Shown here piece by piece: positions 4,953 through 21,958 of a DNA stretch of 26,064 bases. A program made the position numbers and the translations under genes. Origin of the DNA: a virus. The notes beneath the pieces are model-generated. The model was not told the origin of the DNA. It did not search any database and saw only the letters and a list, made by a program, of their open reading frames with translations. Numbering within the stretch: the first letter of the stretch is position 1; each line of letters opens with the position of its first letter. The stretch lies in the IMG/VR virus record IMGVR_UViG_3300031566_000319, positions 1 through 26,064 of that record; one strand, given 5' to 3'.

Positions 4953-6698
4953 ATGGCGATTGGCTTCAGGTCAGCCAACAAGGGGAACAACGGGACGGGG
5001 GCATCGACCCTCGCCATCTCCGCTCCGAGCGGTGTCCAGTCTGGCGACATGCTGGTGATGGGTGTCACCGCTCGTGGTGGCACGGGGACGACCATCGGCC
5101 TGGGTGCCTACTTCCGTGGGAGCGCGAGCCTGCCCAATTACCCGTCCGCCCTGGCGGTTGATCCTGGTGGCGCGTATTACTATGCCTCGTCGTCGGTCGG
5201 GAACTGGATCAAGAAGATCCGCGTATCGGATCTGACCGTGGTGTCAACGATCAGTACGTCGGTGACCTACGCCTCGAACATGTGTGTGACCCCCGATGGT
5301 GCCTGGTTGTACTGCGTGACCTCGCAGGGCAGCCCCGCCTACGCCTACGTCATCGACCTCGCCGACTTCACGCTCCAGACCACGATCACGCTGACGGGTG
5401 GCTATGCCACCAACGCGTTCTCTCTTTCCGACAGCTCCCGGGTCTATGTGCCCTGCGGTGGGCAGAACGTCGTCAAGGTCCTGCGGACGTCGGACCACAC
5501 GTTCGTCAAGGACATCGCCGTCACCTACGCCTTTGACTGGTGCCTCACGCCCGACGATGCGTACATCTACTTCCCCCGGGGAAACGGCAGCCAGATCTAC
5601 AAGGTCAGGACCTCGGACGACACGCTCGTTTCCACGCTGACGCCTACCAAGTCCAACACGAACGGGAGCGGTCCGTTCACGGCGGTCGATGCCGCTGGCG
5701 TATATTACTACCAGCCGAATTGTGGGATCGGTTCGGATGCGGTTACCAGGGTCACGCTCTCGAACGATGCCCTGACCTACTGCACCACTTCGATCACGAG
5801 GCCACAGATCGTCCGGCTGTCCCCAGATGAGTCGCTGATGGCCGTGTACTGCCAGAGTGCGGCGGACTCCAGCAGGGGCGTGGTCCTGATCCGCACGTCG
5901 GACTTCACCGAGATCCGGGCCACCGTAGGTGACACGCCCGACATCAATTCCTTAGAGTGGGACAAGGGCGGCAAGTACCTTGTGTGCCCGTCAGTGAACA
6001 ACAACAAGGCTTATGTCATTCGGGCGAGCGACATGAAGATGATCCGCGAGATCACCGGCCTGACTACGCCTAGTTATGCCAAGGTCAACGGAACCGAAAT
6101 GTACTTCAAGAGCGGTTCTGGTTTGTCGGACGTCGTGGATGCTGGCCCGCTCGACTGGGAGCTGATCGGCAAGCCCGAGAACAGCGGGACGACATTGCGG
6201 CAGGAGTTGTACTGGCGTCTCGCAGGGGCGACCGAACCGTCCGCCTACAGCGCGGCGTTCAACTCGTCCGTCCGAGCATCCGGCGTCGTGGTTGCCTTGT
6301 CGGGCGCTGACCCGTCTGCGCCGCTGAACGCGCAGTACGGAGGCCAGGTAAACGCGAGCAGCACGGCGGTCGATGCTCCCTCGTCCTTTGGCTCGTGGGA
6401 AGCCCGTAATGGGATTGATGTGGCGATGCTTGGGACGGCCTATGAGTCGTCGTTTTCCCCTCCGACTGACTATACCGAACCTGCGAACGGGGACGTCGCA
6501 TCAAGCGGAACGTCGAACGCGACGACCACCGCTGTTTCCTACCGGGCTTTAACGGCGGCCACCTCGGTGGCAGCGATCCAGGGGACAGCCGCGAACGCCG
6601 CCGTCAACATCGGCCAGCATGTGTTTGTGAAGGAGACCGCCCCGGATCTTTCTGACCCGACCCCGATCTCCGTGTTCTTCGGACCGGGTCAGGCATGA
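4953..6698 (+). CDS. Fibre protein: beta-sandwich split by a seven-bladed beta-propeller (581 aa)
   Basis: Residues 1-48 are the first half of a common phage beta-sandwich (FRSANKGNNGTGASTLAIS, GDMLVMGVTARGGTGTTI). In relatives this runs straight into a G-W-x-L-I...GTTLRQELYWR segment. Here that second half begins only at about residue 398 (GPLDWELIGKPENSGTTLRQ). The intervening 350 residues carry about seven YVTN/YNCE-like propeller blades, each with a [VIL]RTSD or IDLADF turn: near residues 90, 135, 178, 219, 268, 313 and 357, with SPDE/TPDG/TPDD motifs between. Propellers often bind sugars or proteins, so a receptor-binding head displayed on a sandwich is the natural reading (inference). 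The stop overlaps the next start by four bases. Confidence 0.75.
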   Translation: MAIGFRSANKGNNGTGASTLAISAPSGVQSGDMLVMGVTARGGTGTTIGLGAYFRGSASLPNYPSALAVDPGGAYYYASSSVGNWIKKIRVSDLTVVSTISTSVTYASNMCVTPDGAWLYCVTSQGSPAYAYVIDLADFTLQTTITLTGGYATNAFSLSDSSRVYVPCGGQNVVKVLRTSDHTFVKDIAVTYAFDWCLTPDDAYIYFPRGNGSQIYKVRTSDDTLVSTLTPTKSNTNGSGPFTAVDAAGVYYYQPNCGIGSDAVTRVTLSNDALTYCTTSITRPQIVRLSPDESLMAVYCQSAADSSRGVVLIRTSDFTEIRATVGDTPDINSLEWDKGGKYLVCPSVNNNKAYVIRASDMKMIREITGLTTPSYAKVNGTEMYFKSGSGLSDVVDAGPLDWELIGKPENSGTTLRQELYWRLAGATEPSAYSAAFNSSVRASGVVVALSGADPSAPLNAQYGGQVNASSTAVDAPSSFGSWEARNGIDVAMLGTAYESSFSPPTDYTEPANGDVASSGTSNATTTAVSYRALTAATSVAAIQGTAANAAVNIGQHVFVKETAPDLSDPTPISVFFGPGQA

Positions 6699-8227: not shown

Positions 8228-8983
8228 TTGAGTCTCCTGCTGCTCTTCTCTAATGGCGCGGCCACAGGAACCGAATACCCGGTCACGGCCGGAGCTTCTG
8301 TGGCGACCATTTCGGAAGCAGCGGTCAGAAGCGCACTCTCTGCGACCCGGGCAACGTCCGGGTCGCTTTCGTCTGTCTCGGAGAGCGCCGTCAGGATCGG
8401 AACGGTCTCGAGATCGACCAGCGCCTCCCTGGCATCGCTGAGTGAGGTCGTTACCTCCCTCAAGGTCATGGCCCGTGGATTGTCTGACAACGTCGCCACC
8501 ATCAGCGCGGCGGCAACCCGGGCTGCGATGGCCAAGTCGAGAACCGTCGCGCAGTCCCTGGCTACGCTGTCAGAGACGGTCACGCGATCTGCAATGGCCA
8601 AGTCCCGGACGGTCGCACAGTCCTTGGGGACCTTGTCCGAGACTGTGGCCCGTGGTGCCGCCACCTTTATCCGTGCCGTCAGCGTGACGCTTGGATCGGT
8701 GTCGGAAGCCGCGACCCGTGGGGCAACGGCTATCTCCAGGACGGTAGCCCAGGCGCTGGGTGCCATCAGTGAGACCGTCGAGGGCATCTACCAGGCTGGG
8801 CTGATCCTGCGGTCGGCTGCTGACTCCGTTGCATCGGTGTCAGAGTCTGTCGCCAGGGGTGCTGTTGCTGCCACCAGGTCAGCCACCGCCACCGTTGCCA
8901 CCCTCGTGGAGTCCGCCGTCCGGGCTGGCATTGCCTTCATCCGCCGTGAGAAGCGGCCCAGCGATCCGGGTGGCCTGCCGTGA
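8228..8983 (+). CDS. Ser-rich 21/22-residue repeat protein, short form (251 aa)
   Basis: The start is the TTG at 8228, seven bases after a GCGGAGG ribosome site. The opening MSLLLLFSNGA resembles the start of other small phage tail proteins. From about residue 20 to 238 it consists of ten units of the same repeat that fills the next gene, with consensus R-[ST]-x-[SA]-x-S-[VL]-[AG]-[ST]-[LI]-S-E-[AST]-[VA]-x-R-x-A. One unit (ISETVEGIYQAGLIL) is a longer variant that recurs in the neighbour. The C-terminus (RREKRPSDPGGLP) is basic. The stop overlaps the next GTG start by four bases, so the two proteins are probably made together and may co-assemble. No family name is recognised. Confidence 0.72.
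   Translation: MSLLLLFSNGAATGTEYPVTAGASVATISEAAVRSALSATRATSGSLSSVSESAVRIGTVSRSTSASLASLSEVVTSLKVMARGLSDNVATISAAATRAAMAKSRTVAQSLATLSETVTRSAMAKSRTVAQSLGTLSETVARGAATFIRAVSVTLGSVSEAATRGATAISRTVAQALGAISETVEGIYQAGLILRSAADSVASVSESVARGAVAATRSATATVATLVESAVRAGIAFIRREKRPSDPGGLP
8285..8941 (+). repeat. Coding repeat array, about 10 units of 21/22 codons
   Basis: Ten degenerate units of 63-66 bp encode the Ser-rich repeat in the shorter protein. Two neighbouring units, both starting RTVAQSL, are nearly identical in protein but differ at many synonymous sites in DNA, so the array is old or kept diverged. Confidence 0.8.
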
Positions 8984-11900
8984 CCGAGATCACCCGCCAT
9001 CCCAGTGCATATACGGACACGACCGGCTTCAACGGTGGCTGGACAAACCCGACCAACGCCTATTCGACCAACACGACATACGCGACGATCCAGACCGGGA
9101 CCAAAGCCCGCAACCAGGAGTGGGCGACCAACTGGCGTGGCTTCGACTTCTCGGTTATCGGGTCTGGCGACACGATCGACTCGGTCGCCGTCCACGTCAT
9201 CGTCAAGGTCAGCGCGGCATGGTCGCAGGGAGAGTTCCGATCGTCGGTCTGGGAAAACGTCACCGTTGCTGCGGCCCTGACGGCTGGGACCACTGGGGCC
9301 ATCGGTCCCGATCTCCAGTACACGCAGAGCACCGCGTCGTGGCCAACCAGCGACACGGACTGGACCTACTCCCTCACCGGAACGATGCCGACGGTCGCCC
9401 AGCTCCAGGCGTCCAACTTCGGCATCCGCGTCCAGACAGCCAACGGCAACAGCGGCGCTGACAGCCTGATCAGCCTCGACGACATCTACCTGGTCGTCGA
9501 CTACTCGACTCCAGCTCAGAACCTGACCCGGACCACGTCAGATAGCGTCTCTTCGGTGTCGGCTGCCGTTGCTCGCGGCACCATGAGCGTCGGGCGTTCG
9601 ACATCTGCCTCGTTGTCCTCCATCGCGGAAGCCATCGTCGGTAGCAAGGTGCTCAACCGGATCACGTCGGCCACCGTGGCAACCCTGACCGAAGCTGCCG
9701 CGAGAACGATCACGCTGGGCAGGTCGACCAGCGCCGCCCTGGCTACTGCCAGTGAGAGCGTTGTCAGGTCCGGCACATTCAGCCGGTCGGTCCCGGTGTC
9801 CCTGGGGGCGATCACCGAAGCTGCCGTCCGATCGGCGATGGCCAAGGTCCGCACGACCGCCGACTCCATCAGCTCCTTCCTCGAAGACGTCATCGGGGAC
9901 TTCATCCCCGGAACACAGGAGATCATCGCCACCGTTGGTGATGCCCTGAGCGCCATCAGTGAGGCTGCGTCAAGGGCAACATCACCAGTTCGCACTGCGG
10001 CAGCTTCTGTGCCAACGCTGTCGGAAGCCATGGCGTCTGGAAGGCTCTTCGTCAGGACGGTTTCCGCCAGGATCTCGTTCGTCTGGGACTACCTCTTCGA
10101 GGCTGGAGCAGAGATCGAGGCCACGGTCTCGGATGCGGTTGGCACGCTTGGGGAGGCCGCGACACGAGGGACGATGGCCGTTGCCAGGTCGCTCTCCGAG
10201 ACGTTTGGCTCTCTCTCCGAGTCGATCTCGAAGCTGCTCTCGCTGGTTCGCTCGAACGCAGACTCTCTTGCGTCTTTGTCAGAGTCGGTTATCAGGAACA
10301 CGGCGTCGTTCGTCAGGTCCACGTCAGAGTCCATTGGATCTCTGTCGGAGGCTGTCGTTCGTGCGGCGGCGACCTTTTCCCGTGCGATCTCCGATGCTGT
10401 GGCATCGATCGGTGAGACAGTGGTTCGTGGAGCGTCGTCTGCCATCAGGTCGACCAGCGCATCCATCGGATCGTTGACCGAGACAGTCGCCAGGGCTGCT
10501 GGGACGTTCACGAGATCCGTGCCGCAGTCCATGGGCTCGATCAGTGAAGCCGTTGTGCGCGGCGCGGTTGCGGCTGTCAGAACTTTGTCTGACAGCGTTT
10601 CGTCCATCACCGCAGCCGTCGTCAGGGCGTCATCCACTTTCACTCGCTCGACGTCAGCCTCTCTTGCCACCCTGTCGGAGTCCGTCGCCAAGGCATCGCA
10701 GATCCTGCGGAGTACATCTGCTTCCCTTGCGTCCATCACGGAGTCCGTGGTCAGGGGCGCGATGTCGAAGGTGCGAAGCACATCCGACTCCGTCCCTGCT
10801 ATTTCGGAAGCAGTGGCCAGGGTCATCGGGTTCGCCAGGACGACATCGGCTGCCATCGCATCGATCTCTGAGGCTGCGACCAGGGGCGCGATGTCCGTGG
10901 CCAGGACGGTCGGGGATGCGATCAGCAGCATCACCGAGCTGGTGTTCACCGCTGGCAATCTCATCACCAGGTCGGCGGATGCCGCGATCAGCTCCATCAG
11001 TGAGAGCGTGGCTCGAGCTGCCATGGCGGTCTCGAGGAGCACTTCCGACAGCCTCTCGACGTTGGTGGAGACAGCCACCAGGGCTGCCATGGCAAAGGTG
11101 CGTTCACTAAGCGACTCCGTTGCCACCCTTAGTGAAGCCCTCGTGCGCGGGGCCTTTAGCAAGGTCAGGTCGGCTGCGGATAGCATCTCGACGGTGGGAG
11201 AGCAGGCTTCCCGGAGCTCCATGCTCGTGCTCCGCTCGTGGTCTGACTCCATCGGATCTGTCGCAGAGTCTGCGACCAGGGGGGCTCTTGCTGCCTCTCG
11301 ATCCGTTCCGCAGGCCGTCGAGTCGATCTCAGAGACAGTCACCAGGGCTGGGTCATTCGTTCGCTCGGCGACGGCTTCCATCGCGTCCATCGTTGAGACA
11401 GTTGTCCGGTCCGGGATGGCCAAGGTCAGGGATGCTGCTGATTCCGTGACTCTGATCTCCGAAACGGTGACCAGGATCGCGGCGGTGGCTAGGTCGCTTG
11501 CTGACACCGTGACGTCGGTGAGCGAGACCGTTCTCCGTGGCGCGATGGCCAAGATCCGCTCCGCTGCTGACTCCGTCTCATCGATGACGGAGGCTGTAGC
11601 CCGCTCTGCCATGTCCATTGCAAGATTGGCATCGCAGTCTCTGGGCTCGATCTCGGAGACAGTTGCCAGGCAGGCAATCTCGGTCGTCCGGTCCGCATCG
11701 GACACCATCGGGTCGTTGGCCGAGGTTGTCTCTCGAGCCACGATGGCAGTTGCTCGCTCCGCCTCCGCCTCGATCGCGTCGGTGCTGGAGAGCATTACCA
11801 GCTCTGCCCTGATCTCGAGAGTGGCTACTGCCGCCATCTCATCACTGAGTGAGGCACCCACAAGGATTGCCACGGTTTCCCGGTCCATCGGAGAGTCTAT

Positions 11901-14064
11901 TGGGACCCTGGCGGAGACGGTGTTCTCGGCAGGCAACCTCCTCGTTCGGACGGCTGCTGAAGCTATCGATACGGTCTCTGAGGCCTTGATCAGGGCCTCG
12001 ACGTCCGTTACTCGATCGGCTGCAGAAGCCGTAGGTTTGGTATCTGAGGCGGTTGGTCGATCTCTGGCGACGGTCAGAACGGCTGTAGCCTCGATCGCTT
12101 CGGTCGTGGAGTCCGTTATCCGGACCACCTCGGTCTACCGCCTGGCCAGTGATGCACTTTCGACGCTCACTGAGTCCGTGGTCAGAGGCTCGACTGCAGT
12201 GGTGCGAGCCACATCAGATGCCGTGTCGTCCATCTCTGAGGCTGTGGTCAGGACGGTTGGCCTGGTCATCAGGTCAATGTCCGAGACTGTCGCATCGGTG
12301 AACGAGACGGCGTCCAGGTTGCTCTCCATGACGCGGTCACTCGCCTCCTCTTTGGGATCCATCAGCGAGAACGCCGCCCGCCTGCTGTCCACTGTCCGCA
12401 CGGTCGCTGACTCTGTTCCCTCCCTAGCAGAGTCAGCGGTTCGCTCTGCAATGGCGGTCGCCAGAAGCGTCGCCGAGAGCATCGGATCGATCTCGGAAAG
12501 CATCGCAAGGCAAGCCATCGCCGTTGTCCGTTTGATGTCCGACGGAGTCTCGAGCCTCTCTGAAGCCATTGCGCGCGCGACCATGTCGGTTGTCCGCAGC
12601 GCCACGTCCTCAATCTCCTCGATGACAGAGACCACCGCGAGTTCCGCCTACATCCCCAGAGCAGTCGCCAGCGCCATCTCATCGGTGAGCGAGGTGGTCA
12701 CCAGGGTGGCCACGGAGATGAGATCAGTCTCCGACGTCATTGCCTCGTTGTCCGAGGTGGTGTTCCAGGGTCTGGCAGGGCTCATCACCAGGGCCGTGAG
12801 TGACAGCGTGGAGACCATCTCAGAGTCCCTGAGCCGCGCCTCGATGGGTGTCACTAGAGCCGTATCCGATGCCGTGAGCTCCATCTTCGAGGCTGTCGCC
12901 AAGGTGATGTCTTCCGCTAGAACGGCGGTGGCTTCGATCGGTTCGATCGTCGAGTCTCCGTCGAGGATCGCCGAAGTCTTCAGGTCTGCTGGCGACGTCG
13001 TCTCGTTTGCCTCCGAGACAGTGGTGCGGGCGTCGATGTCGGCGCTGAGGTTCGTTGGGGACTCTGTCTCCGGGATCTCGGAAGATGTATCAAGATCGCT
13101 TGGGACGATTGTGCGATCGGCGGCTGAGGTGCTGGGGTCGATCAGCGAGTCGGTTGCGAGGATCGCGACCAACGCCAGGTCGATGGCTGACTCCATCCCG
13201 TCCGTATCGGAAGCTGTGGTCCGTGGGGCGATGGTTGTGTCCAGGGCCGCCGCTGAGAGCATTTCCACGATCATCGACTTCGTCTCAACCGGCGCGCAGT
13301 ACATCGTCAGGTCGGTGACGGACAGCTTGTCCTCCTTGGCAGAGGCTGTTGTCAGGTCTGGTGATTGGGTCAGGTCCTCGAACGATGTCTTGGAATGGGC
13401 CAGCGAGTCCGTGTCCAGGGTCGCCGACAAGGTGAGGTTCGCCGCGTCCTCCATCGGCTCCATCCTCGAGGATGTCTTTGGGGAGTTCACCAGCGGTGCG
13501 GTTCACCTGATCCGCAGCGTGGCCGATGCGATCGAGTCCCTCGCAGAGTCAGTGTCCGGATCCTTCACCATCCAGCGGGTTGTGTCGGACACGGTCGGGG
13601 CGATCTCGACTGCCGTCGATCGAACGCTCGGTGCCGCCAGGTCGGCTGCTGACAGCATCTCGAGCATCGCGGCGTCGGTGGTCAGGTCGGGCTCGTTCTA
13701 CCGATCCACATCAGAAGCAATCGCTTCCATCTCAGAAGTAGCCGCACGTTATGGCGCGGTACTAGCACGGTATGCGACCGATCTCGTTTCACCGATGACA
13801 GAGGCTGTCAGCAGGGGCGGTAACGCGCTCTTCCGGACCGTCGACGATTCGATTGGCTCCATCGGTGAAGCAGCTTGGCGTCTGGGAACTCGGGCTCGAG
13901 CGATCATCATTCGCGAGGCCAAGGCATCAGCGACCATCATTCGTGCAGTGCCTTCAGCCGGGATCCTGCGCGTCAGCAAGGCCGTAAGCACGATCATCAG
14001 ACGACGCGGTACAACCACCATCGTCCGCGAAGACAAGCCTTCAGGAGGGATCGAACGTGAGTGA
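8980..14064 (+). CDS. Giant Ser-rich repeat fibre protein (1694 aa)
   Basis: The GTG start overlaps the previous stop. Residues 1-183 form a beta-sandwich-like N-terminal domain (SVIGSGDTIDSVAVHVIVKV, FGIRVQTANGNSGADSLISL, DIYLVVDY), a type common in phage fibres. Residues 184-1639 are about 67 consecutive units of 21 or 22 residues with consensus R-S-x-S-D-S-[VIL]-x-S-[IL]-S-E-[AST]-V-[VA]-R-x-A-M. Hydrophobic positions 3, 7, 10, 14, 18 and 21 are spaced 4-3-4-4-3-4, and R1/D5 and E12/R16 are i,i+4 pairs. This fits a long helical coiled coil of heptads (21) and hendecads (22). Seven longer or aromatic units interrupt it. The last 55 residues are basic and Ile/Arg-rich. It lies far upstream of the tail tube and chaperone genes, so a fibre fits better than a tape measure. 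Confidence 0.8.
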   Translation: MTEITRHPSAYTDTTGFNGGWTNPTNAYSTNTTYATIQTGTKARNQEWATNWRGFDFSVIGSGDTIDSVAVHVIVKVSAAWSQGEFRSSVWENVTVAAALTAGTTGAIGPDLQYTQSTASWPTSDTDWTYSLTGTMPTVAQLQASNFGIRVQTANGNSGADSLISLDDIYLVVDYSTPAQNLTRTTSDSVSSVSAAVARGTMSVGRSTSASLSSIAEAIVGSKVLNRITSATVATLTEAAARTITLGRSTSAALATASESVVRSGTFSRSVPVSLGAITEAAVRSAMAKVRTTADSISSFLEDVIGDFIPGTQEIIATVGDALSAISEAASRATSPVRTAAASVPTLSEAMASGRLFVRTVSARISFVWDYLFEAGAEIEATVSDAVGTLGEAATRGTMAVARSLSETFGSLSESISKLLSLVRSNADSLASLSESVIRNTASFVRSTSESIGSLSEAVVRAAATFSRAISDAVASIGETVVRGASSAIRSTSASIGSLTETVARAAGTFTRSVPQSMGSISEAVVRGAVAAVRTLSDSVSSITAAVVRASSTFTRSTSASLATLSESVAKASQILRSTSASLASITESVVRGAMSKVRSTSDSVPAISEAVARVIGFARTTSAAIASISEAATRGAMSVARTVGDAISSITELVFTAGNLITRSADAAISSISESVARAAMAVSRSTSDSLSTLVETATRAAMAKVRSLSDSVATLSEALVRGAFSKVRSAADSISTVGEQASRSSMLVLRSWSDSIGSVAESATRGALAASRSVPQAVESISETVTRAGSFVRSATASIASIVETVVRSGMAKVRDAADSVTLISETVTRIAAVARSLADTVTSVSETVLRGAMAKIRSAADSVSSMTEAVARSAMSIARLASQSLGSISETVARQAISVVRSASDTIGSLAEVVSRATMAVARSASASIASVLESITSSALISRVATAAISSLSEAPTRIATVSRSIGESIGTLAETVFSAGNLLVRTAAEAIDTVSEALIRASTSVTRSAAEAVGLVSEAVGRSLATVRTAVASIASVVESVIRTTSVYRLASDALSTLTESVVRGSTAVVRATSDAVSSISEAVVRTVGLVIRSMSETVASVNETASRLLSMTRSLASSLGSISENAARLLSTVRTVADSVPSLAESAVRSAMAVARSVAESIGSISESIARQAIAVVRLMSDGVSSLSEAIARATMSVVRSATSSISSMTETTASSAYIPRAVASAISSVSEVVTRVATEMRSVSDVIASLSEVVFQGLAGLITRAVSDSVETISESLSRASMGVTRAVSDAVSSIFEAVAKVMSSARTAVASIGSIVESPSRIAEVFRSAGDVVSFASETVVRASMSALRFVGDSVSGISEDVSRSLGTIVRSAAEVLGSISESVARIATNARSMADSIPSVSEAVVRGAMVVSRAAAESISTIIDFVSTGAQYIVRSVTDSLSSLAEAVVRSGDWVRSSNDVLEWASESVSRVADKVRFAASSIGSILEDVFGEFTSGAVHLIRSVADAIESLAESVSGSFTIQRVVSDTVGAISTAVDRTLGAARSAADSISSIAASVVRSGSFYRSTSEAIASISEVAARYGAVLARYATDLVSPMTEAVSRGGNALFRTVDDSIGSIGEAAWRLGTRARAIIIREAKASATIIRAVPSAGILRVSKAVSTIIRRRGTTTIVREDKPSGGIERE
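9529..13896 (+). repeat. Coding repeat array, about 67 units of 21/22 codons
   Basis: The array runs from residue 184 to 1639 of the giant fibre. Dividing it at each repeat-initial Arg (or its replacement) gives 67 units: mostly 21 or 22 residues, with outliers of 25, 23 and 26 at units 6, 50 and 61. DNA copies are strongly diverged at synonymous sites. Units 13, 15 and 17 share a TF[ST] ending, giving a local two-unit period, and units 33-41 resemble units 46-54. Confidence 0.85.
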
Positions 14065-14410
14065 GATCGTCGCCCAGCGTGGCGATAACGAGACCTACGA
14101 CCTCACGGTCGTAGACGCTTCGGGGGTGGCGATCGACCTGACGTCCTACACCCTGAAGTTCACCATCAAGGTCAACGCGAAGGACAAGCACTACATCGTC
14201 CAGAAGACAACCGGAAGCGGGATCACCCTGCTCGACCAGGGGGCTCCTGCGACCAAGGGCATGGCAACCATCGCCCTGCTCCCGGCAGACACCGCCAAGC
14301 TCGTTGCCCCCAAGACCCTCTACTTCGATGTGGAGATGACATCCGACAGTGACATCGTGACCACGGTCGTGGACGGCGACTTCTCGCTCCTGGCCGACAT
14401 CACTCGATAG
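14057..14410 (+). CDS. BppU-like N-terminal domain protein (117 aa)
   Basis: The GTG start, seven bases after AGGAGGG, overlaps the giant fibre gene by eight bases. The whole protein matches a small beta domain widely found at the start of baseplate and fibre proteins: QRGDNETYDLTVVDASG, then DLTSYTLKFTIK, a G-x-A-T-I-A-L-x-P-A-D-T strand, YFDVEM, and VVDGDFSLLADIT. In BppU-type proteins this domain docks a fibre to the tail tip. Here it stands alone, so it may be an adaptor for the neighbouring fibres. The fold assignment is fairly sure; the docking partner is inference. Confidence 0.77.
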   Translation: MSEIVAQRGDNETYDLTVVDASGVAIDLTSYTLKFTIKVNAKDKHYIVQKTTGSGITLLDQGAPATKGMATIALLPADTAKLVAPKTLYFDVEMTSDSDIVTTVVDGDFSLLADITR

Positions 14411-14423
14411 AAGGGAGACAGTC

Positions 14424-15173
14424 TTGGCAGCCTCTGTTCCTACGGTCGTAGACGAGACATCGGGCCTCTGGTACCGACCGTCCGTTGTCGGCGATCTCAA
14501 GATGCTTCGCGAGGTGGAGTCCGCTTACGACAAGCTGCCCATCAAGGATGACGACGTGTTCCTCGATCTCGGGGCGCATGTCGGTGCAGCCAGCATGTTC
14601 GCCCTCAAGCGTGGGGCAGCGAAGGTCATTGCAGTCGAGCCCGACCCGTCCAACCTCGAGCTTCTGCACCGCAACCTGGACGGTTCCAACGTCCAGATCA
14701 TTGAGGCTGCGGTGGGAGACAGAAGCGGGACCACGATGCTCTACACGAGGGCATCGAAGCCGCATCTCTCGACCACCGAGAGCAACGAGCCTGGTCGTGA
14801 GGCGATCGAGGTCTCGGTCATTGCATTGGGCGATCTGCTGCGGCGCTACCGGCCGACCATCCTCAAGTGCGACATCGAGTTCGGGGAGTACGCGCTGACG
14901 CGTCTCGGGAAGCTGAGCCCGACCATCCGCGCTGTGGCAATCGAGATCCACATTCGCTATGACCTCGTCTTCGACTCTGCCAGCCAGTCTGATACTGCAC
15001 TGCGTATCAAGCGGCGGGAGGCGTTGACCCTGGTCGACACGATCGAGGCCCAGGGCTTCACCCGCGTCGCCTACAGGACCAAGGAGTACCCCGGTCCGAG
15101 GGTCACCGACGACACCGGACTTCCTCCTGACACTGCTTCCATCGAAGGTGTTTGGGTTCGATCGGAGGACTAG
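14424..15173 (+). CDS. FkbM-family SAM-dependent methyltransferase (249 aa)
   Basis: The TTG start follows AAGGGAG by six bases. Motif I is VFLDLGAHVGAAS (residues 45-57), the acidic end of strand 2 is VIAVEPDPSNLELL (68-81), and motif III-like IIEAAVGDRSG follows. The KCDIEFGEY segment near residue 158 corresponds to the K-x-D-x-E-G-x-E signature of FkbM methyltransferases. These usually O-methylate sugars or small molecules. It is the first gene of a five-kilobase cassette of sugar enzymes, so a glycan on the virion or cell surface is the likely substrate (inference). Confidence 0.85.
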   Translation: MAASVPTVVDETSGLWYRPSVVGDLKMLREVESAYDKLPIKDDDVFLDLGAHVGAASMFALKRGAAKVIAVEPDPSNLELLHRNLDGSNVQIIEAAVGDRSGTTMLYTRASKPHLSTTESNEPGREAIEVSVIALGDLLRRYRPTILKCDIEFGEYALTRLGKLSPTIRAVAIEIHIRYDLVFDSASQSDTALRIKRREALTLVDTIEAQGFTRVAYRTKEYPGPRVTDDTGLPPDTASIEGVWVRSED

Positions 15174-15174
15174 G

Positions 15175-15846
15175 GTGCGGGTCGTCATTTTGGCTGGCTC
15201 TGATCCAGCGGTTGAGAGCGCCCGATGGCGTAACCATATGGGTGTGCCTCGTCACCTGGCACCGATCGACGGTGAGCCGATCCTGTATCACACCGTCAGG
15301 CAACTGGATGGTCATGACATCTATGTTGTCGGGCCTGATGACGACCGCTACCGCATTCCAGGAACGACGCTGTTCATTCCGACCATCACGCCATCCAACC
15401 TTTGGGCGGACCCCCTCTTGCACAACCGGTCACTTCGTGACCCTGATGGACGGACTGTTGTCCTGTGTGGTGACACATGGTTCTCGGACGATGGGATGTC
15501 CAGGATCCTGAACTACAACGAGCGGGAGTGGCGGTTCTTCTGTCGGTTCGGAGCCAGCAAGATGACGGGCTGCCTTTGGGGCGATATCTGGGGGCATTCA
15601 TTCTGGCCCGAGCATGTCGAGCGTCATGACGATCGTCTGCGCTACGTCATGGACCTGTTCACCTCGAAGGTCATCAGCCGCAACGGGTTCTGGGAGCACT
15701 ATCGCGCTATGGCGGGTGCGACCGGTCGCGATGTGGACTGCCATCGCAATCTCGGCATGGTGACCGAGATCGATGATTGGACCGAGGACTTCGATTTCGC
15801 CGAGGATTACGACAAGTACATCGCGAGGCGGGCTGAGCTTCTGTGA
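15175..15846 (+). CDS. Nucleotidyltransferase-like GT-A fold protein (223 aa)
   Basis: The GTG at 15175 is preferred to the in-frame GTG at 15148 because CGGAGG lies seven bases before it and it starts right after the methyltransferase stop. The N-terminus MRVVILAGSDP, then PRHLAPIDGEPILYHTVRQL, follows the NTP-transferase pattern (L-A-G...P-K-x-L-x-x-I-x-G-x-P-[IL]-[IL]). In place of the lysine it has RHL. VVLCGDTWFSDD holds the expected metal-binding Asp. It may make a nucleotide-sugar for the glycosyltransferases that follow, or be a diverged transferase itself. The C-terminus overlaps the next start by four bases. Confidence 0.7.
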   Translation: MRVVILAGSDPAVESARWRNHMGVPRHLAPIDGEPILYHTVRQLDGHDIYVVGPDDDRYRIPGTTLFIPTITPSNLWADPLLHNRSLRDPDGRTVVLCGDTWFSDDGMSRILNYNEREWRFFCRFGASKMTGCLWGDIWGHSFWPEHVERHDDRLRYVMDLFTSKVISRNGFWEHYRAMAGATGRDVDCHRNLGMVTEIDDWTEDFDFAEDYDKYIARRAELL

Positions 15847-16460
15847 TCAGCGTCATCATCCCGACCTACAACCGGGCGAAGCTTCTGGTCGAACGGTCGA
15901 TCCCATCGGTCCTCGCCCAGACCAACAAGGACTGGGAGCTCCTGATCGTTGGTGATGGAACGGACGACGAGACGGTCGAGGCCCTTGATCACCTCGATGT
16001 TCCGTTCAGGTTCTGGAACCTGGCCCATGATCGCTACCCCAGCAATCATGACCAGGCCTGGGGCATGTACGGACTGACGGCGCTCAACTTCGGTCTCGAC
16101 TGGGCCAAGGGAGAGTGGATCAGCGTCATCAACGATGACGACGAGTACACGCCCGACAACCACGAAGTTCTACTGGCGGAAGCCAAGAAAACCGGGTCGG
16201 ACTTCATCTATGGGATGAGCGACACCTGGAAGAACGGAGTCCGGACGGGACAGCTCTACGGCAAGGTCCCTCCTGGTGACGGGTCCGTGACCCAGGGTTC
16301 CTACATCTACCGTCGCAGTCTGGAGTACCGCTACCGGCATGACTGCTACAGCCGGGGGCTGAACGGTGATGCCGACATGTGGGTCAGGATGAGAAACGCA
16401 GGAGTGACGTTCGCCTTCCTGCCCAGAGTTGTCCATCACTATCACAGGAGCTTTCCGTGA
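15843..16460 (+). CDS. Family 2 glycosyltransferase (205 aa)
   Basis: The GTG start sits in a GTGA overlap. The protein begins with the classic GT2 signature ISVIIPTYNRAKLL, followed by SVLAQTNKDWELLIVGDGTDDET. The metal-binding motif is NDDDEY (residues 97-102) after the ISVI strand. ADMWVRMRNAG near the C-terminus fits the acceptor-side motif. At 205 residues it is a compact, single-domain GT-A enzyme without membrane segments, so it probably acts in the cytoplasm on a nucleotide-sugar donor. Acceptor and sugar are unknown; virion proteins or host glycans are candidates. Confidence 0.88.
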   Translation: MISVIIPTYNRAKLLVERSIPSVLAQTNKDWELLIVGDGTDDETVEALDHLDVPFRFWNLAHDRYPSNHDQAWGMYGLTALNFGLDWAKGEWISVINDDDEYTPDNHEVLLAEAKKTGSDFIYGMSDTWKNGVRTGQLYGKVPPGDGSVTQGSYIYRRSLEYRYRHDCYSRGLNGDADMWVRMRNAGVTFAFLPRVVHHYHRSFP

Positions 16461-17032
16461 TCCCTGGCAGTGACAAGGGGCCGACCTACCTGGCCCTCTA
16501 CGACCGCTACTTCGAGACTCTCCGCGATAAGCCCGTGAAGCTCCTCGAGATGGGCATTGCGAATGGTGCATCCCTTCGCTACTGGGCTGACTACTTCCCC
16601 AAGGGGAAGATCGTGGGTCTCGATCTCGAGCCGCCTGCCATCAAGCACCCCCGCATCAGGACGGTGAAGGGCAACCAGTCTGACGCAGCCGCTCTCGATG
16701 CCTGCGGCGACTCCTTCGACATCATCATCGACGACTGTGCCCACATCGGTGTGGCCGCGAGGGCGTCCTTCGCGCACTTGTTCCCCAAGGTCGTGTCGGG
16801 TGGCATCTATGCCATCGAGGACTGGGGCACCGGGTACTGGTCGAACTGGGTTGACGGGGCTGCCTTTAGGCCTGGACACAACGCTGGCATGGTGGGTTTC
16901 GTCAAGGATCTCTTCGACCGGGTGTCCATCAACGACATCACCAGGGGCAGCTTCGAGGGTCACTCGGACGAGCAGTCGGACATCGAGTCCATGACCCTCA
17001 TCAACGGCCTGGTGGTCGTGGTCAAGGCATGA
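16457..17032 (+). CDS. Class I SAM methyltransferase, sugar O-methyltransferase-like (191 aa)
   Basis: The GTG at 16457 is chosen because it overlaps the previous stop (GTGA) and has CAGGAG six bases upstream; the in-frame ATG at 16379 would overlap the glycosyltransferase by 80 bases. Motif I is LLEMGIANGASLRYW (29-43), then IVGLDLEP, a GNQSD turn, DIIIDDCAHI (88-97) and GGIYAIEDW (115-123). This set resembles macrolide-sugar O-methyltransferases of the MycE type. It may cap or modify the same glycan as the FkbM-like enzyme. Acceptor unknown. Confidence 0.82.
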   Translation: MIPGSDKGPTYLALYDRYFETLRDKPVKLLEMGIANGASLRYWADYFPKGKIVGLDLEPPAIKHPRIRTVKGNQSDAAALDACGDSFDIIIDDCAHIGVAARASFAHLFPKVVSGGIYAIEDWGTGYWSNWVDGAAFRPGHNAGMVGFVKDLFDRVSINDITRGSFEGHSDEQSDIESMTLINGLVVVVKA

Positions 17033-17727
17033 TCCCCGTCCTTGCCACCCCCGTCCTGGATCGATACGACCTTCTCGCGAACATGGAGAAGAGCGTGGAC
17101 GTGGACGTGGAGCGGTACTACATCGTCGACAACGGTGGTCGGTACGGGGGAGAGAGCAGCCTGTTCGCCGACGTCGTCCATGTTTGTCGCCCCGGTGCCA
17201 ACCTTGGGTTTTCAGCCTCGATCAACCTGGCGATCAAGGCCAACCTCATGGCTCCCTGGTGGCTGTTCGTCAATGACGACATCGTCTTTGGTCCTGGTGA
17301 CCTGAAGGCCATGGAGGACCAGATGTGGGCCTCGAAGGACAAGCCGCTGATCGCAACGATGCAGACCTGTGCCTTCGCCGCCTTCGCAATCAATGACGCT
17401 GCCCTGGAGCTGACGGGATGGTTCGACGAGAACTATCACCCTGCCTATTGCGAGGACTGTGACATTTCATGGCGAGCAACCCGCAAGGGTGTGAAGTTCG
17501 TCGATATACCGGGAGCTACTCGTCATCTTGGCAGCCAGACAATCGGCGGGAACCGCAAGCGCAGGGATGAGAACAACCGGACCTACCCCATCAACGTCAA
17601 GTATCACCGCGAGAAGTGGGGAGGAGCTCCAAGGCAGGAGGTGTACGAGACGCCCTACAACCAGGGTGGTGACTCTTTCCTTACCACTGCCCCGAGACTC
17701 AGCCGTCTACGAGAGCTAGTCTGGTAG
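17029..17727 (+). CDS. Family 2 glycosyltransferase, rhamnosyltransferase-like (232 aa)
   Basis: The start lies in an ATGA overlap. Recognisable GT2 elements are VERYYIVDNGG, the RPGANLGFSASINLAI helix (57-69), the metal-binding NDDI after WWLFV (79-85), and FDENYHPAYCEDCDISWRATRKG (132-154) with the acidic catalytic cluster. The N-L-G-F...F-D-E-x-[FY]...E-D-x-D-x-x-x-R pattern is typical of bacterial rhamnosyl- and related transferases. It has no membrane segment. With the other transferases it can build a short oligosaccharide; sugar identity is not inferable. Confidence 0.87.
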   Translation: MIPVLATPVLDRYDLLANMEKSVDVDVERYYIVDNGGRYGGESSLFADVVHVCRPGANLGFSASINLAIKANLMAPWWLFVNDDIVFGPGDLKAMEDQMWASKDKPLIATMQTCAFAAFAINDAALELTGWFDENYHPAYCEDCDISWRATRKGVKFVDIPGATRHLGSQTIGGNRKRRDENNRTYPINVKYHREKWGGAPRQEVYETPYNQGGDSFLTTAPRLSRLRELVW

Positions 17728-17750
17728 CGGACGCGACAAAGGAGAGCTCG

Positions 17751-17948
17751 ATGAGCGACACCAAGCGAAAGTGGAAGACGGATCCCCTGGAGAAGTTCAC
17801 GGACATCATCTCTCCGGAGGAGTACAGGAAGCACGGCATCAGGCGTCATCTTCCGCCTATCGCACCGTATCGCCCCTTTGATCCGACGGGTGACCTGGAG
17901 CTTCGTCGAGAAGTCGACGACAAGTTCCGCATCAAGCGCACGAAGTAG
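17751..17948 (+). CDS. Small charged hypothetical protein (65 aa)
   Basis: AAAGGAG lies some eight bases before the ATG, a good ribosome site. The product is strongly charged (MSDTKRKWKTDPLEKF, then HGIRRHLPPIAPYRPFDPTG, ending DDKFRIKRTK) with a Pro-rich centre and no hydrophobic core of note. It may be partly disordered. I do not recognise it. It sits inside the sugar cassette but could equally be an unrelated insert. Confidence 0.62.
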   Translation: MSDTKRKWKTDPLEKFTDIISPEEYRKHGIRRHLPPIAPYRPFDPTGDLELRREVDDKFRIKRTK

Positions 17949-17951
17949 CTC

Positions 17952-17980
17952 TTGCCCCGCGCATTGCGTTCGCGTATCGT
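17952..17980 (+). promoter_or_regulatory. Possible sigma-70-type promoter
   Basis: TTGCCC (17952-17957) and TATCGT (17975-17980) are separated by 17 bases; each matches the consensus at four of six positions. It lies at the start of the longest non-coding gap in the window (164 bases), upstream of the GT4 gene and the head module. This is a weak match and unproven. Confidence 0.3.
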
Positions 17981-17997
17981 TCATCGAAGTTGAAGGG

Positions 17998-18048
17998 CGA
18001 ACCGCGCAGGTTCGGCAAGCCGATCGGCGGCGTGAGTACGCTATGTAC
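17998..18048. other. Cluster of three dyad symmetries in the 164-base gap
   Basis: The gap 17949-18112 holds three inverted repeats in 51 bases: CGAACC/GGTTCG around a five-base loop (17998-18014), the perfect palindrome GCCGATCGGC (18019-18028), and GTAC/GTAC around five bases (18036-18048). They could be operator half-sites or leader RNA structure. No tRNA or open reading frame is convincing here. Confidence 0.45.
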
Positions 18049-18112
18049 GACGCGCCCTTCCTCCCCTACACCAGAGACCGGCTAGAGCCATGCTCGCCGG
18101 ACGGAGGCTTCT

Positions 18113-19381
18113 TTGGCTCGTGTTCTGTGGCTGGGTGACGCTGGATGCACCACTGGGTTCGGCACCGTCTCCCATGCGATCGGTGATCGCCTGGTAGATG
18201 TGTATGGACACGACGTCCATACGTTGGCGACGAACTATCGCGGCGACCATTGGCCGACATCAATGAAGCTCTACGTCCCGACTCTGCGTGATCAAAGGGA
18301 CGTCTATGGCGTCACCAGGTTCGTGGAGATGCTCGGTAAGGTCGGCCCAGAGGTCGTCATCTCGCTCAACGATCCACTTGTCCTGCTGCGGCACCTGTTC
18401 AAGAACAGCCACGACAAGGTGCTCTCGCTCGCCAGGTATGCGCCCATCCTTGCCTACTTTCCCGTTGATGGACTGAACTACCCGGGAGTGGTCAGCAGGA
18501 TCCCTGATCTGGTCAGCGCGTTGGAGCCGCTCGAAGGGGCCAGGACCCCGAAGCCGTTCCTTCTTCCGATCGTGATGAGCAAGTTCGGCAACACGACGTT
18601 CCCGAATGCTCCGCTCGTCTACCACGGCATCGACACCGAGACCTTCCGACCGGTCACGATGCGGCCGACGACGATGTCCAACGGGGCCATCATCAAGTCC
18701 AAGGCTGACGCCAAGCGTGCCCTGGAGCTCCCCGATGACTGCATCCTCGCGGTCCGGGTCGATCGCAACAGCCAGCGGAAGAACTACGCGGACTCGGTCA
18801 AGGCCCTTGTTCCGGTGATGCAGAAGGAGCCCAAGCTCCACGTCTGGTTCCACGCCAAGGCTGAGGACAGTGTTGGCATCGACTTCAACCTTCTCGTGTC
18901 CAGGTTCCCCGATGTCCAGGACAGGTTCCACTGGCCGGGGATGTTCGACACCACGATCGGCTGGAACCTCGAAGACCTGGTGACGGTCTACAACGCTGGG
19001 GACTTCTTCCTCAGCACCTCTGGCGGTGAGGGCTTCGGCCTGACGCTCGGTGAGGCTCTCGCGTGTGAGCTACCGGTCATCGCCATGAACGTATCGGCAA
19101 TCCCTGAGGTCGTTGGCCCAGGTGGCGTGTTGCTCGAGCCCGACCGGACCTATGTGCCGCTCTCGGGACAGGACAATTGGCTTCCCAATGTGGAGGCTTT
19201 CACCGGCGCAATCCGAAAGATGGTCAGCTCCAAGGGAGCCAGACGTGATCTCGGTAAAGCCGGACGGAAGCACGTCGTCGAGTCCTTCTCGTGGGACGAG
19301 GCAGCGAACCGCTTCGATCAACTCATTACTAGCGTGGTCCAGAAGGCCTCTGGAGATGCCACGCCAGGAGGCGCTTCGTGA
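18113..19381 (+). CDS. GT-B (family 4-like) glycosyltransferase (422 aa)
   Basis: The TTG start at 18113 follows CGGAGG by five bases. The N-terminal half has a GT4-type opening with glycine loop (RVLWLGDAGCTTGFGTVSHAI). The hinge region reads VYHGIDTETFRP (169-180), and the donor-binding half shows RVDRNSQRKN (215-224), then GGEGFGLTLGEALACELPVIA (304-324), where E306 and E314 form the E-x7-E motif. IPEVVG follows. This is a retaining-type glycosyltransferase acting on a nucleotide-sugar. It closes the sugar cassette and overlaps the prohead protease start by four bases, so it is co-expressed with head genes, in keeping with glycosylation of virion parts (inference). Confidence 0.87.
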   Translation: MARVLWLGDAGCTTGFGTVSHAIGDRLVDVYGHDVHTLATNYRGDHWPTSMKLYVPTLRDQRDVYGVTRFVEMLGKVGPEVVISLNDPLVLLRHLFKNSHDKVLSLARYAPILAYFPVDGLNYPGVVSRIPDLVSALEPLEGARTPKPFLLPIVMSKFGNTTFPNAPLVYHGIDTETFRPVTMRPTTMSNGAIIKSKADAKRALELPDDCILAVRVDRNSQRKNYADSVKALVPVMQKEPKLHVWFHAKAEDSVGIDFNLLVSRFPDVQDRFHWPGMFDTTIGWNLEDLVTVYNAGDFFLSTSGGEGFGLTLGEALACELPVIAMNVSAIPEVVGPGGVLLEPDRTYVPLSGQDNWLPNVEAFTGAIRKMVSSKGARRDLGKAGRKHVVESFSWDEAANRFDQLITSVVQKASGDATPGGAS

Positions 19382-20673
19382 CCACTACTACCCCGGCCTT
19401 CCGTTGGAAGGGACTCGATGCCATCGATGAGGCTGTTGCCGTTGTCGATGACCTCGCCCCGGATCAGCTCAAGCAGATCATGGACCTGCCGGAGCTGAAG
19501 ATCATCACTGATGCCTTCAAGACGGACTCGGGTCTGGTCGATGGCATGGCGATGAAGACGCTGCATTGCACCGCGTCCTCGACGATCAAGGACCTGCACG
19601 GCGACTTCATGACCGAGGAGTGCGTCAAGGACATGGCGCGTCAGGCCAAGCAGAGCCTGACCATCTTCCTCAACCACAAGTACGACGCCCCGGAGGATGT
19701 CGGCGGTCGCGTGTATGCCGCAGACGCCCGTCCCACCGGTGAGCATGACAGCGAGGGCAAGGAGATCTGGGATCTCCACTACGACATCGCCCTCACCAGG
19801 AACAACTCCCGCGTCGAGCAGATCTATAAGATGGTCCGTGATGACGGCATCCGCCTTGGGATCTCCATTGGCGCGTACATCGTCGAGTACGACTACATCG
19901 ACAAGGAGGCTGGCTTCTGGGGCGGCCTCATCATCAACAAGGTCCTCCTCGTGGAGACCAGCGTTGTCGGTATCCCGGCCAACCAGCGGTCGTGGGTCCA
20001 GAACGGCGTGATCGCCATCGGCAAGAGCCTGGGCATCGCCGAGAAGCAGATCCGTCGGGTCTTCGACGGTAAGGAGGCAGCTCCCATGACGCTCAAGACT
20101 GCGTCACTCAACGACAACAGCATGATCACCACCACCACCGCCGACAACGTCATTCTCAATGAGACGGCGACGACCACGACAGAGCTCGTGATCGAGCAGG
20201 CGGATGACACCGAAACCACCAGCACCGAAGAGGTGCAGGAGGCTACCGAGGCCGCTCCCGAGACGGAGAGCCCGGCCGAGGAAACGACCGAGGAGACGAC
20301 CGAGGAGCCCGTCGTCGAGACCACCGAGGCTTCTGCCCCGGCTCTCGAGGTTGTCGCGCCCGAGATCGCCCTCTCGCTGAACGAAGGCAACACGCCGACC
20401 GTGGAGCTGGTTCTGGCCGCACTGGAGCAGGCAGCGGAGACGCTGACTGCTGTCCGGACGGAGAAGGCCACCCTCCAGGTCAAGTATGACGCGCTGCTGG
20501 AGGAGCGAGACCAGGCCATCAAGGACCGTGACGACGCCGCCGAGATCATCGCGATCGTTGCCAGGTCTCCACTCGGACGGAAGTCCCAGTTCGTGGCACC
20601 CGTGCAGACCTTCCGGTCTCGCTTCGGGGACATCTACGACGAGGCCTTCCTGAAGCTTTTGGAAAGTGAGTAA
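19378..20673 (+). CDS. Prohead protease fused to scaffold-like C-terminal region (431 aa)
   Basis: The GTG start follows AGGAGG by five bases. Residues 1-215 form an HK97-type prohead protease: the catalytic His is H100 in FLNHKYDAPEDVGGRV, the catalytic Ser is S163 in GISIGAYI, and the LLVETSVVGIPANQ strand completes the fold. Residues 255-330 are a Thr/Glu-rich acidic linker (repeated EETTEE-like runs). Residues 350-400 form a likely coiled coil (LVLAALEQAAETLTAVRTEKATLQVKYDALLEERDQ pattern), typical of the delta/scaffold domain. The protein therefore probably guides capsid assembly and then degrades itself. It overlaps the capsid gene start by eight bases. Confidence 0.9.
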   Translation: MTTTTPAFRWKGLDAIDEAVAVVDDLAPDQLKQIMDLPELKIITDAFKTDSGLVDGMAMKTLHCTASSTIKDLHGDFMTEECVKDMARQAKQSLTIFLNHKYDAPEDVGGRVYAADARPTGEHDSEGKEIWDLHYDIALTRNNSRVEQIYKMVRDDGIRLGISIGAYIVEYDYIDKEAGFWGGLIINKVLLVETSVVGIPANQRSWVQNGVIAIGKSLGIAEKQIRRVFDGKEAAPMTLKTASLNDNSMITTTTADNVILNETATTTTELVIEQADDTETTSTEEVQEATEAAPETESPAEETTEETTEEPVVETTEASAPALEVVAPEIALSLNEGNTPTVELVLAALEQAAETLTAVRTEKATLQVKYDALLEERDQAIKDRDDAAEIIAIVARSPLGRKSQFVAPVQTFRSRFGDIYDEAFLKLLESE

Positions 20674-21958
20674 CCCAACAATGGACCAGGACTTCCTGGC
20701 TCGCCTCAAGGCGGCCCTGGATGAGCTCGGCCCGGAGCTGGACAAGCAGAACGACGCGCCCCGTACCGCTTTGGCGGGCGTGGGTGAGGATCGCGACCAC
20801 GCGGCTCGCAAGTTCCTCAACAGCGACGATCAGCTTCAGCTTCGCCGATCTCTCCGGAAGCTGTCTGACAGCGAGCTCAACTCGTTCTTCAGCGTCCAGG
20901 CGCGGAAGAACAACCAGGGCATCCCTGTCGACCACTGGATGGCGGCAGGCGGGAACTCCAACTCGATCGCCCAGGCGTTCGAGCAGAACCCGCAGATCAC
21001 TCGCGCTCTCGACTCCACCGGTTCGGCACCGCTGATCCGGCAGGACCTGGAGCCGGTCATCTACGAGATGTTCATCCGGAACTTCCCGGCCTACGAGCGG
21101 TTCCCGAAGGAACCGGCCAACGGCCTCGTGCATGCCTACAACCGGACGACCTCGTTCGGTGGTGCGGCGTTCATGGGCGAGCTCGGAACGGTCACCGACT
21201 CGGTGGCGGTCTACGAGCGGGCGACGACCCCGATCACCATCCTCGCCACCCGGCGCGGCGTGACGATCAAGGCCGTGGCAGCCGTGAACGCGGGCGGCAT
21301 GGCATGGAACCCGGAGCAGATGGAGATGCAGGCAGCCCTGCGCGCCATCAGCTACACCATGCAGAAGACCATCTTCCAGGGCAACAGCACGGTCTCGACG
21401 GCCGCGTCTGATGGTTCTGACGAGGACGGCGCTTACGACGTGTACGCGTTCGACGGTCTCCGCAAGCTCCTCAAGGCCAACACCCTGGGTGTCGATCCGA
21501 CCGTCTCGACGGACATGCGCGGCGTGTTCAACGATGCGGTCATCGAGGCCATCCAGAGCGCGGGCTCCCCGAAGATCGCGTACCTGGATCCGCTCACCAA
21601 GGGCGTGTTCGACAAGCAGCAGGACAAGAACATCCGCTACTCGAACGAGTTCGTGGATGTGGGCGTCGGCGTCACGACCAACGTCGTGAACACCGCCAAC
21701 GGTCCGATCCCGCTGTTCATCGTTCCCGGCGACTCGATCGGCGAGTACACCTACAGCGGCGACACCGTCTCTGACGTGTACTTCCTCGATGAGAGTGTCT
21801 TCTCGATCCCCTACCTGGGGAGTGAGGGACCGACGATCCTCGACATTCCGATGGGTGTTGGCGGGCAGCTCACCCGCCAGTTCATCGTCTTCGGGATGTG
21901 GGGCTTCGCCGCCAAGGCCCTGCAGTTCAGCCGCAAGGTCCGGGTCACCCGCGAGTAG
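20666..21958 (+). CDS. Major capsid protein, HK97 fold (430 aa)
   Basis: This forms the icosahedral head shell. Residues 1-110 are helical and charged and may be the part removed by the protease (delta-like). The mature fold shows APLIRQDLEPVIYEMFIRNFPAYERFP (N-arm and E-loop region), ATTPITILATRRGVTIKAVA, a P-domain helix with LKANTLGVD, KIAYLDPLTKGVFDKQQ, and the C-terminal strand GMWGFAAKALQFSRKVRV. Position after the protease-scaffold gene is canonical. The GTG at 20666 overlaps the protease stop; an in-frame ATG at 20681 is an alternative, with GGAAAGTGAG ahead of it. A GC-rich hairpin follows the stop. Confidence 0.92.
   Translation: MSNPTMDQDFLARLKAALDELGPELDKQNDAPRTALAGVGEDRDHAARKFLNSDDQLQLRRSLRKLSDSELNSFFSVQARKNNQGIPVDHWMAAGGNSNSIAQAFEQNPQITRALDSTGSAPLIRQDLEPVIYEMFIRNFPAYERFPKEPANGLVHAYNRTTSFGGAAFMGELGTVTDSVAVYERATTPITILATRRGVTIKAVAAVNAGGMAWNPEQMEMQAALRAISYTMQKTIFQGNSTVSTAASDGSDEDGAYDVYAFDGLRKLLKANTLGVDPTVSTDMRGVFNDAVIEAIQSAGSPKIAYLDPLTKGVFDKQQDKNIRYSNEFVDVGVGVTTNVVNTANGPIPLFIVPGDSIGEYTYSGDTVSDVYFLDESVFSIPYLGSEGPTILDIPMGVGGQLTRQFIVFGMWGFAAKALQFSRKVRVTRE

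What the first reader, a model, noticed from the sequence alone, without database searches (positions are those of the whole stretch)
8980..14064. Giant fibre of about 67 Ser-rich 21/22-residue repeats with mixed heptad/hendecad spacing
Every unit from residue 184 to 1639 fits R-S-x-S-D-S-[VIL]-x-S-[IL]-S-E-x-V-x-R. Hydrophobic positions in 22-residue units are spaced 4-3-4-4-3-4 (two hendecads), and the other common length, 21, equals three heptads. R1/D5 and E12/R16 are i,i+4 pairs. If wholly helical, about 1456 residues at 0.15 nm each would give up to about 218 nm, unusually long for a phage fibre. The Ser content is atypical for a coiled coil, so a beta structure or glycosylated rod remains possible.
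Basis: partly seen in the sequence, partly recalled or inferred. Interest (0 to 1): 0.82.

Follow-up and report, generated by a model that had tools for sequence, protein, structure and literature searches.

The report
Giant helical-repeat phage adhesion fibre
A virus of bacteria known only from environmental DNA carries a gene for a very long protein built from about 67 copies of a 21- or 22-residue helical unit, probably a roughly 200-nm rod-like fibre for reaching its host; the same repeat, undescribed as far as I could find, occurs in about 20 other uncultured phages.

Summary
ORF 8980-14064 (1694 aa) carries 66 detectable units plus one degenerate unit (residues 184-1639); 61 of 65 intervals are exactly 21 or 22. 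The quoted motif is only a consensus: no unit matches it fully. The array has one hydrophobic period, 3.62 residues, so it is helical. Unit length and core register are coupled: position 17 is hydrophobic in 133/218 21-residue units but 3/207 22-residue units, as heptads versus paired hendecads require. An AlphaFold2 monomer of residues 1-467 is helical over the array, but confidence is very low (mean pLDDT 41). The same repeat occurs in ~20 other uncultured phage contigs (483 units, 22 proteins), with variable N-terminal beta domains, inserted lectin-like domains in some, and often a BppU_N-like domain fused to the C-terminus or encoded next. The tape measure is a separate downstream gene in several relatives; PHROG 'tape measure' hits reflect helical composition. 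Best reading: the shaft of a multimeric coiled-coil adhesion appendage, more likely tail-tip than head, up to ~216 nm if fully extended. That length has precedents (phage chi, phiCbK). A new, uncharacterised variant of a known kind; oligomeric state, attachment site and receptor are not shown.

The parts
8980..14064 (+). Giant repeat fibre gene (1694 aa, GTG start)
   Evidence: Open frame; intact in contig 3300031565_007922 with no SNP in the gene
8980..9528 (+). N-terminal non-repeat domain, residues 1-183, beta-rich; no family assigned
   Evidence: No Pfam/PHROG match to this part; AF2 strands at 32-37, 69-79, 94-102, 145-153, 164-175, low confidence; PDB phmmer hits only E 0.046 or worse
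9529..13896 (+). Helical repeat array, residues 184-1639, 66 detected + 1 degenerate units of 21/22 residues
   Evidence: PSSM against shuffles, 3.62-residue hydrophobic period, heptad/hendecad register switch
9850..9927 (+). Long 26-residue unit (residues 291-316); the class of long units lacking R16 recurs in relatives (possible hinge)
13435..13512 (+). Second 26-residue unit (residues 1486-1511), same class
9991..10119 (+). 43-residue double unit (338-380) with aromatic FVWDYLF segment; similar aromatic units in L014 (LTYVYDYFF) and L092 (LAFVHDYWS)
13897..14061 (+). C-terminal tail, residues 1640-1694, with short strand-like motifs
   Evidence: Sequence reading; different tails in relatives
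8228..8983 (+). Companion repeat gene (251 aa, 10 units), overlapping the fibre start; the adjacent pair is also present in L014, with a similar C-terminus (FIRREKRPSD / FIRREHRPSD)
14057..14410 (+). BppU_N-like small beta protein (117 aa), overlaps the fibre's 3' end; fused to the fibre C-terminus in L009, L011, L020
   Evidence: PHROG 1084 E 1.5e-14; Pfam BppU_N weak E 0.041; alignment of 11 homologues; AF2 pLDDT 72.8; BFVD matches include domains of phage minor tail proteins

Best explanation
The gene encodes the shaft of a multimeric (probably trimeric) alpha-helical coiled-coil appendage of a tailed phage. Each chain is one long, roughly straight amphipathic helix: 21-residue units are three heptads and 22-residue units two hendecads, and mixing them keeps the core stripe close to the natural 3.6 residues per turn, so the rod needs little supercoiling. 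The charged residues R1, D5, E12 and R16 lie on the outer face and pair within the helix; I/V/L at 7, 10, 14 and 17 (or 18/21) form the core. The variable N-terminal beta domain and, in relatives, inserted LamG-like domains are the likely binding elements. The C-terminal end is likely tied to the virion or to partner proteins through the BppU_N-like domain. Fully extended, the array would span about 216 nm and let the phage contact distant receptors such as flagella, pili or capsule. Attachment at the tail tip or baseplate is favoured over the head. Shown: repeat, helical periodicity, register coupling, family breadth, gene order. Inferred: oligomerisation, straightness, length, attachment, adhesion.
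For: Hydrophobic power peak at 3.62 residues, 8.2 against a shuffle maximum of 1.66; 3.52 in the 21-rich relative L009 and 3.66 in the all-22 relative L016, as heptads and hendecads predict. Position 17 hydrophobic in 90/137 versus 2/118 (p 9e-31), repeated in relatives not used to define it: 42/79 versus 1/89 (p 2e-16). In both unit lengths the four charged residues lie 126-180 degrees from the hydrophobic face centre. Synonymous codons of conserved residues are randomised between units (35.0% same versus 34.1% expected), so the motif is kept by selection rather than recent copying. Related arrays in ~20 phage contigs with N-terminal beta domains, Laminin_G_3 insertions (E 3.6e-37) and a fused or adjacent BppU_N-like domain. 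A second repeat-bearing gene directly follows the tape measure-like gene in the 70-kb relative. The BppU-like protein matches phage minor tail protein domains by fold and a relative lies beside baseplate genes in a Microcystis phage.
Against: AF2 confidence is very low (mean pLDDT 41; shallow alignment, monomer only). Oligomeric state was not testable. The Ser/Thr content is high for a coiled coil. The gene lies among head genes (between portal and protease/MCP), not after the tape measure where tail fibres usually lie. No homologue in a cultured phage and no virion proteomics. The BppU_N Pfam match is below its cut-off and Foldseek gave no PDB match with E below 0.001.
Confidence: 0.6

Rival explanations
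1. Head fibre or head filament: the same coiled-coil rod, but anchored to the capsid rather than the tail tip, as proposed for phiCbK gp76 and shown (with a much shorter fibre) for phi29 gp8.5.
For: The gene sits between portal and protease/MCP in the window and several relatives. phiCbK gp76 (2,799 aa) is a giant protein with a concanavalin A-like domain encoded nearer the head genes and proposed as the ~200 nm head filament (PMC3556154); L020 also has ConA-like (LamG) insertions.
Against: The repeats also occur in a second gene right after the tape measure-like gene in the 70-kb relative. The BppU_N-like partner resembles minor tail protein domains. phiCbK gp76 is described as Gly-rich and coil/beta, not helical.
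Confidence: 0.25
2. Tape measure protein: a long helical protein setting tail length inside the tube.
For: PHROGs best hits are tape measure families (phrog_5493 E 9e-24); long helical protein.
Against: Separate tape measure genes lie downstream in relatives: L014 (Pfam TMP_3 4.5e-8), L109 9264-13280, L105 16593-19340 and L022 4915-9477 by sequence and position. The window ends at a small gene in the tail-chaperone position, before any tape measure. Arrays carry extracellular-type LamG and N-terminal beta domains in relatives, and score only weakly (about 13-19 bits) with TMP_3.
Confidence: 0.03
3. Disordered or glycosylated Ser/Thr-rich rod rather than a coiled coil; nearby glycosyltransferase-like genes could decorate it.
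For: Ser 20%, Thr 8.5% of the array; glycosyltransferase-like genes follow it (sequence reading); low AF2 confidence.
Against: Strict helical hydrophobic periodicity, register coupling and conserved surface i,i+4 charge pairs are not expected of disorder.
Confidence: 0.07
4. Helix-turn-helix bundle: each unit folds back rather than continuing one helix (as the phi29 head-fibre stem does), giving a shorter rod.
For: Gly and Pro occur in linkers and caps in some units; [ST]-x-x-[DE] capping-box-like motifs at positions 2-5 and 9-12 (sequence reading); [quoted passage not shown]
Against: The core stripe continues through the linkers in register for both unit lengths; AF2 gives helices of 30-75 residues spanning unit boundaries (low confidence).
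Confidence: 0.15

Closest known systems
Phage chi (Salmonella) single long tail fibre
   Same: About 220 nm long, siphovirus fibre binding a distant receptor (flagellum) (PMC9266447)
   Different: No sequence link tested or claimed; no evidence here that this phage binds flagella
phiCbK gp76 candidate head filament
   Same: Giant repetitive protein encoded near head genes, ConA-like lectin domain inside, ~200 nm filament (PMC3556154)
   Different: gp76 is Gly-rich, coil/beta; the present protein is a helical 21/22-residue repeat, and the window copy has no LamG domain
phi29 gp8.5 head fibre
   Same: N-terminal beta base plus a helical trimeric fibrous stem (PMC6542822)
   Different: 280 aa, helix-turn-helix, no sequence match in the PDB search
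BppU_N / PHROG 1084 baseplate-type domain
   Same: Adjacent gene, or C-terminal fusion in L009/L011/L020; weak Pfam and fold similarity
   Different: Pfam score below cut-off; no PDB fold match with E below 0.001
HRTV-25 gp7 + gp8 (haloarchaeal tailed virus)
   Same: Giant LamG protein gene overlapping a BppU_N gene next to the terminase/portal genes; the BppU gene is 41% identical to L013's
   Different: gp7 is Ser/Thr/Gly-rich without the 21/22-residue helical unit
Apolipoprotein-type 22-residue / hendecad helical repeats (Pfam ApoLp-III, Apolipoprotein)
   Same: Amphipathic 11/22-residue helical periodicity; weak Pfam hits
   Different: Different residue pattern, no homology claimed; hits are compositional

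Membership tests
Tape measure protein | Gene follows major tail protein and tail chaperones | tested here: not met
   Lies between portal and protease/MCP; candidate tape measure genes occupy the expected place in L014, L022, L105, L109
Tape measure protein | Sequence match to a tape measure family | tested here: inconclusive
   PHROG 5493 E 9e-24 but confined to the low-complexity helical array; arrays of relatives score only about 13-19 bits with TMP_3
Phage adhesion fibre (tail or head) | Elongated repeat shaft with a distinct terminal globular domain | tested here: met
   66 units plus N-terminal beta-rich domain
Phage adhesion fibre (tail or head) | Receptor-binding type domain present | tested here: inconclusive
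   LamG in relative L020; none recognised in the window copy
Phage adhesion fibre (tail or head) | Present in the virion, homotrimeric | not testable with these tools
   Needs virions or purified protein
Alpha-helical coiled coil (heptad/hendecad) | Core stripe with 3.5 or 3.67 residue period, charges on the outer face | tested here: met
Alpha-helical coiled coil (heptad/hendecad) | Confident structure of an oligomer | not testable with these tools
   Only a monomer prediction, pLDDT 41
BppU_N domain (neighbour gene 14057-14410) | Pfam score over cut-off | tested here: not met
   14.0 bits versus 23.1; PHROG 1084 E 1.5e-14

The most novel reading that the evidence does not exclude
A previously undescribed family of phage fibres in which two unit lengths (21 = heptads, 22 = hendecads) are mixed so that the supercoil of a very long coiled coil is tuned close to zero, giving straight rods of ~200 nm whose length changes by adding units, with hinge units and insertable lectin domains, widespread in uncultured phages.
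Probability: 0.4. Interest if true: 0.65.

Novelty: new variant of a known kind. Interest (0 to 1): 0.52.

Why it matters
It describes a repeat family, apparently unnamed, that a PHROG search would file as tape measure protein. It shows a simple, testable rule (21 versus 22 residues per unit, with matching core residues) by which a phage could build very long, nearly straight helical fibres, and it would offer a modular scaffold for studying how phages reach distant receptors and how fibre length evolves.

Tried and rejected
INPHARED tblastn of the fibre, its N-terminal domain and the MCP: no match. TRF on DNA: no tandem repeat in the gene, because units have diverged at the nucleotide level. 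Genome-collection scan with profile A5: 114 pattern stretches, none confirmed. The degenerate DNA patterns gave terminase false positives in viral contigs (L023, L024, L026) and mostly single chance matches in genomes; only L058 and L060 carry arrays, on MAG contigs that may be misbinned phage, so no host is claimed. Apolipoprotein, prominin, ZorA and tape measure family hits rejected as compositional. PDB profile search: only a designed helical repeat protein. A 13-unit block duplication (residues ~838-1053 versus 1119-1334, with nearly the same order of unit lengths) is suggestive, but shuffled unit orders reached higher values. The window's N-terminal domain is not detectably related to the N-terminal domains of the L014/L100 group. 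The long antisense ORF 10089-12128 is not treated as a gene.

Full report
What was checked. The window is an IMG/VR virus fragment of 26,064 bases. It encodes a terminase large subunit (3-1091), a portal (1471-2805, Pfam E 4.4e-34), several structural genes, the repeat genes, glycosyltransferase- and methyltransferase-like genes, a prohead protease (19378-20673) and a major capsid protein (20666-21958). The named ORF, 8980-14064, is real: a second contig with only 3 SNPs over 20.9 kb has the same 1694-residue frame with no change in it.

The repeat. An iterated position matrix finds 66 units from residue 184 to 1639, with one 43-residue stretch holding a 67th, degenerate unit. Shuffled versions of the same protein give 1.5 on average and 6 at most. 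Intervals are 36 of 22 and 25 of 21 residues, with two of 26, one of 23 and one of 43. The printed motif is a consensus that no unit matches in full. The preceding gene, 8228-8983, carries ten further units and overlaps the start of the fibre gene. At the DNA level the units are diverged: no tandem repeat is detected, and identical residues use the same codon no more often than codon usage predicts (35.0% versus 34.1%), so the motif is maintained by selection.

The helix and its register. Hydrophobicity in the array has one strong period, 3.62 residues (power 8.2 versus a shuffle maximum of 1.66). Relatives rich in 21-residue units peak near 3.52 and an all-22 relative at 3.66. If a 22-residue unit is two hendecads, the core after position 14 must move from 17 to 18 and 21. 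That is what is seen: position 17 is hydrophobic in 90 of 137 21-residue units but 2 of 118 22-residue units (p 9e-31; window alone 12/25 versus 1/42, p 9e-6), and again in relatives not used to define the rule, 42/79 versus 1/89 (p 2e-16). The charged positions 1, 5, 12 and 16 lie on the opposite face in both lengths. The mean, 21.6 residues per six turns, is 3.60 residues per turn, close to an undistorted alpha-helix; near-zero supercoil is an inference from this. AlphaFold2 on residues 1-467 gives helix across the array and strands in the N-terminal domain, but with mean pLDDT 41 it is only weak support.

The family. A profile scan and a degenerate two-unit DNA pattern found related arrays in about 20 other contigs, all uncultured: in all 483 units in 22 proteins, with 425 of the 461 intervals exactly 21 or 22. 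The N-terminal parts vary. L020 has two Laminin_G_3 domains inserted near the start of the array (Pfam 3.6e-37), and L011 and L093 have other insertions of about 200 residues. Longer units of 23-26 residues, often EAVVAVKSG-like and lacking R16, recur and may be hinges (the hinge role is inference). Window and L014 share an adjacent pair of repeat genes, and the first proteins of the pairs have similar C-termini.

Neighbours. A small BppU_N-like protein overlaps the 3' end of the fibre gene (14057-14410; PHROG 1084 E 1.5e-14, BppU_N only 14.0 bits against a cut-off of 23.1). A similar gene follows the fibre gene in L008, L013, L016, L093, L095, L100 and L103, and the domain is fused to the fibre in L009, L011 and L020. 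In L012, L014, L015, L058, L091, L092 and L101 another gene follows. Its model (pLDDT 72.8) matches many small phage proteins and domains of Microbacterium phage minor tail proteins in BFVD, but nothing in the PDB with E below 0.001. In a Microcystis phage a 30%-identical protein lies just after baseplate genes. In the haloarchaeal virus HRTV-25 a 41%-identical gene (to L013's) overlaps a giant LamG gene next to terminase and portal, without the helical repeat.

Not the tape measure. PHROGs labels the array as tape measure, but in relatives separate tape measure genes lie downstream: L014 (TMP_3, E 4.5e-8), and by position and sequence L022 4915-9477, L105 16593-19340 and L109 9264-13280. In the 70-kb relative a second repeat-bearing gene follows the tape measure-like gene almost directly, which links the repeat to the tail tip.

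Interpretation. The best reading is the shaft of a multimeric coiled-coil adhesion appendage. Gene position near head genes keeps a head fibre possible; the phiCbK head-filament candidate gp76 is also giant, head-proximal and contains a ConA-like domain (PMC3556154), and phage chi has a ~220 nm tail fibre (PMC9266447). The ~216 nm length holds only if each chain is one continuous helix; a helix-turn-helix stem like phi29 gp8.5 (PMC6542822) would be shorter. No description of this repeat was found in the papers searched, which cover open-access papers only.

Noticed in passing
window 10089-12128 (-): A 679-aa antisense ORF lies inside the fibre gene, probably a by-product of its codon usage (no TTA and few CTA codons); not tested in relatives.
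   Followed up: partly
window 4953-6698: 581-aa protein with a beta-propeller-like centre (weak Pfam THOC3/Lactonase hits) between segments resembling a generic phage beta domain.
   Followed up: no
window 15148-19381: Glycosyltransferase- and methyltransferase-like genes between the fibre and the protease; similar genes lie near the head genes in relatives.
   Followed up: no
L060 versus L008: An Armatimonadetes MAG contig carries a nearly identical copy of the L008 fibre, possibly a misbinned phage contig or a host hint.
   Followed up: partly
L050 1930-4977 (Roseobacter phage CRP-6): A gene with a different, beta-looking short repeat precedes a BppU_N-like gene, as if the same slot holds other repeat types.
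   Followed up: partly
window fibre residues 838-1053 and 1119-1334: Possible 13-unit block duplication with nearly matching order of unit lengths; not significant against shuffled unit order.
   Followed up: yes
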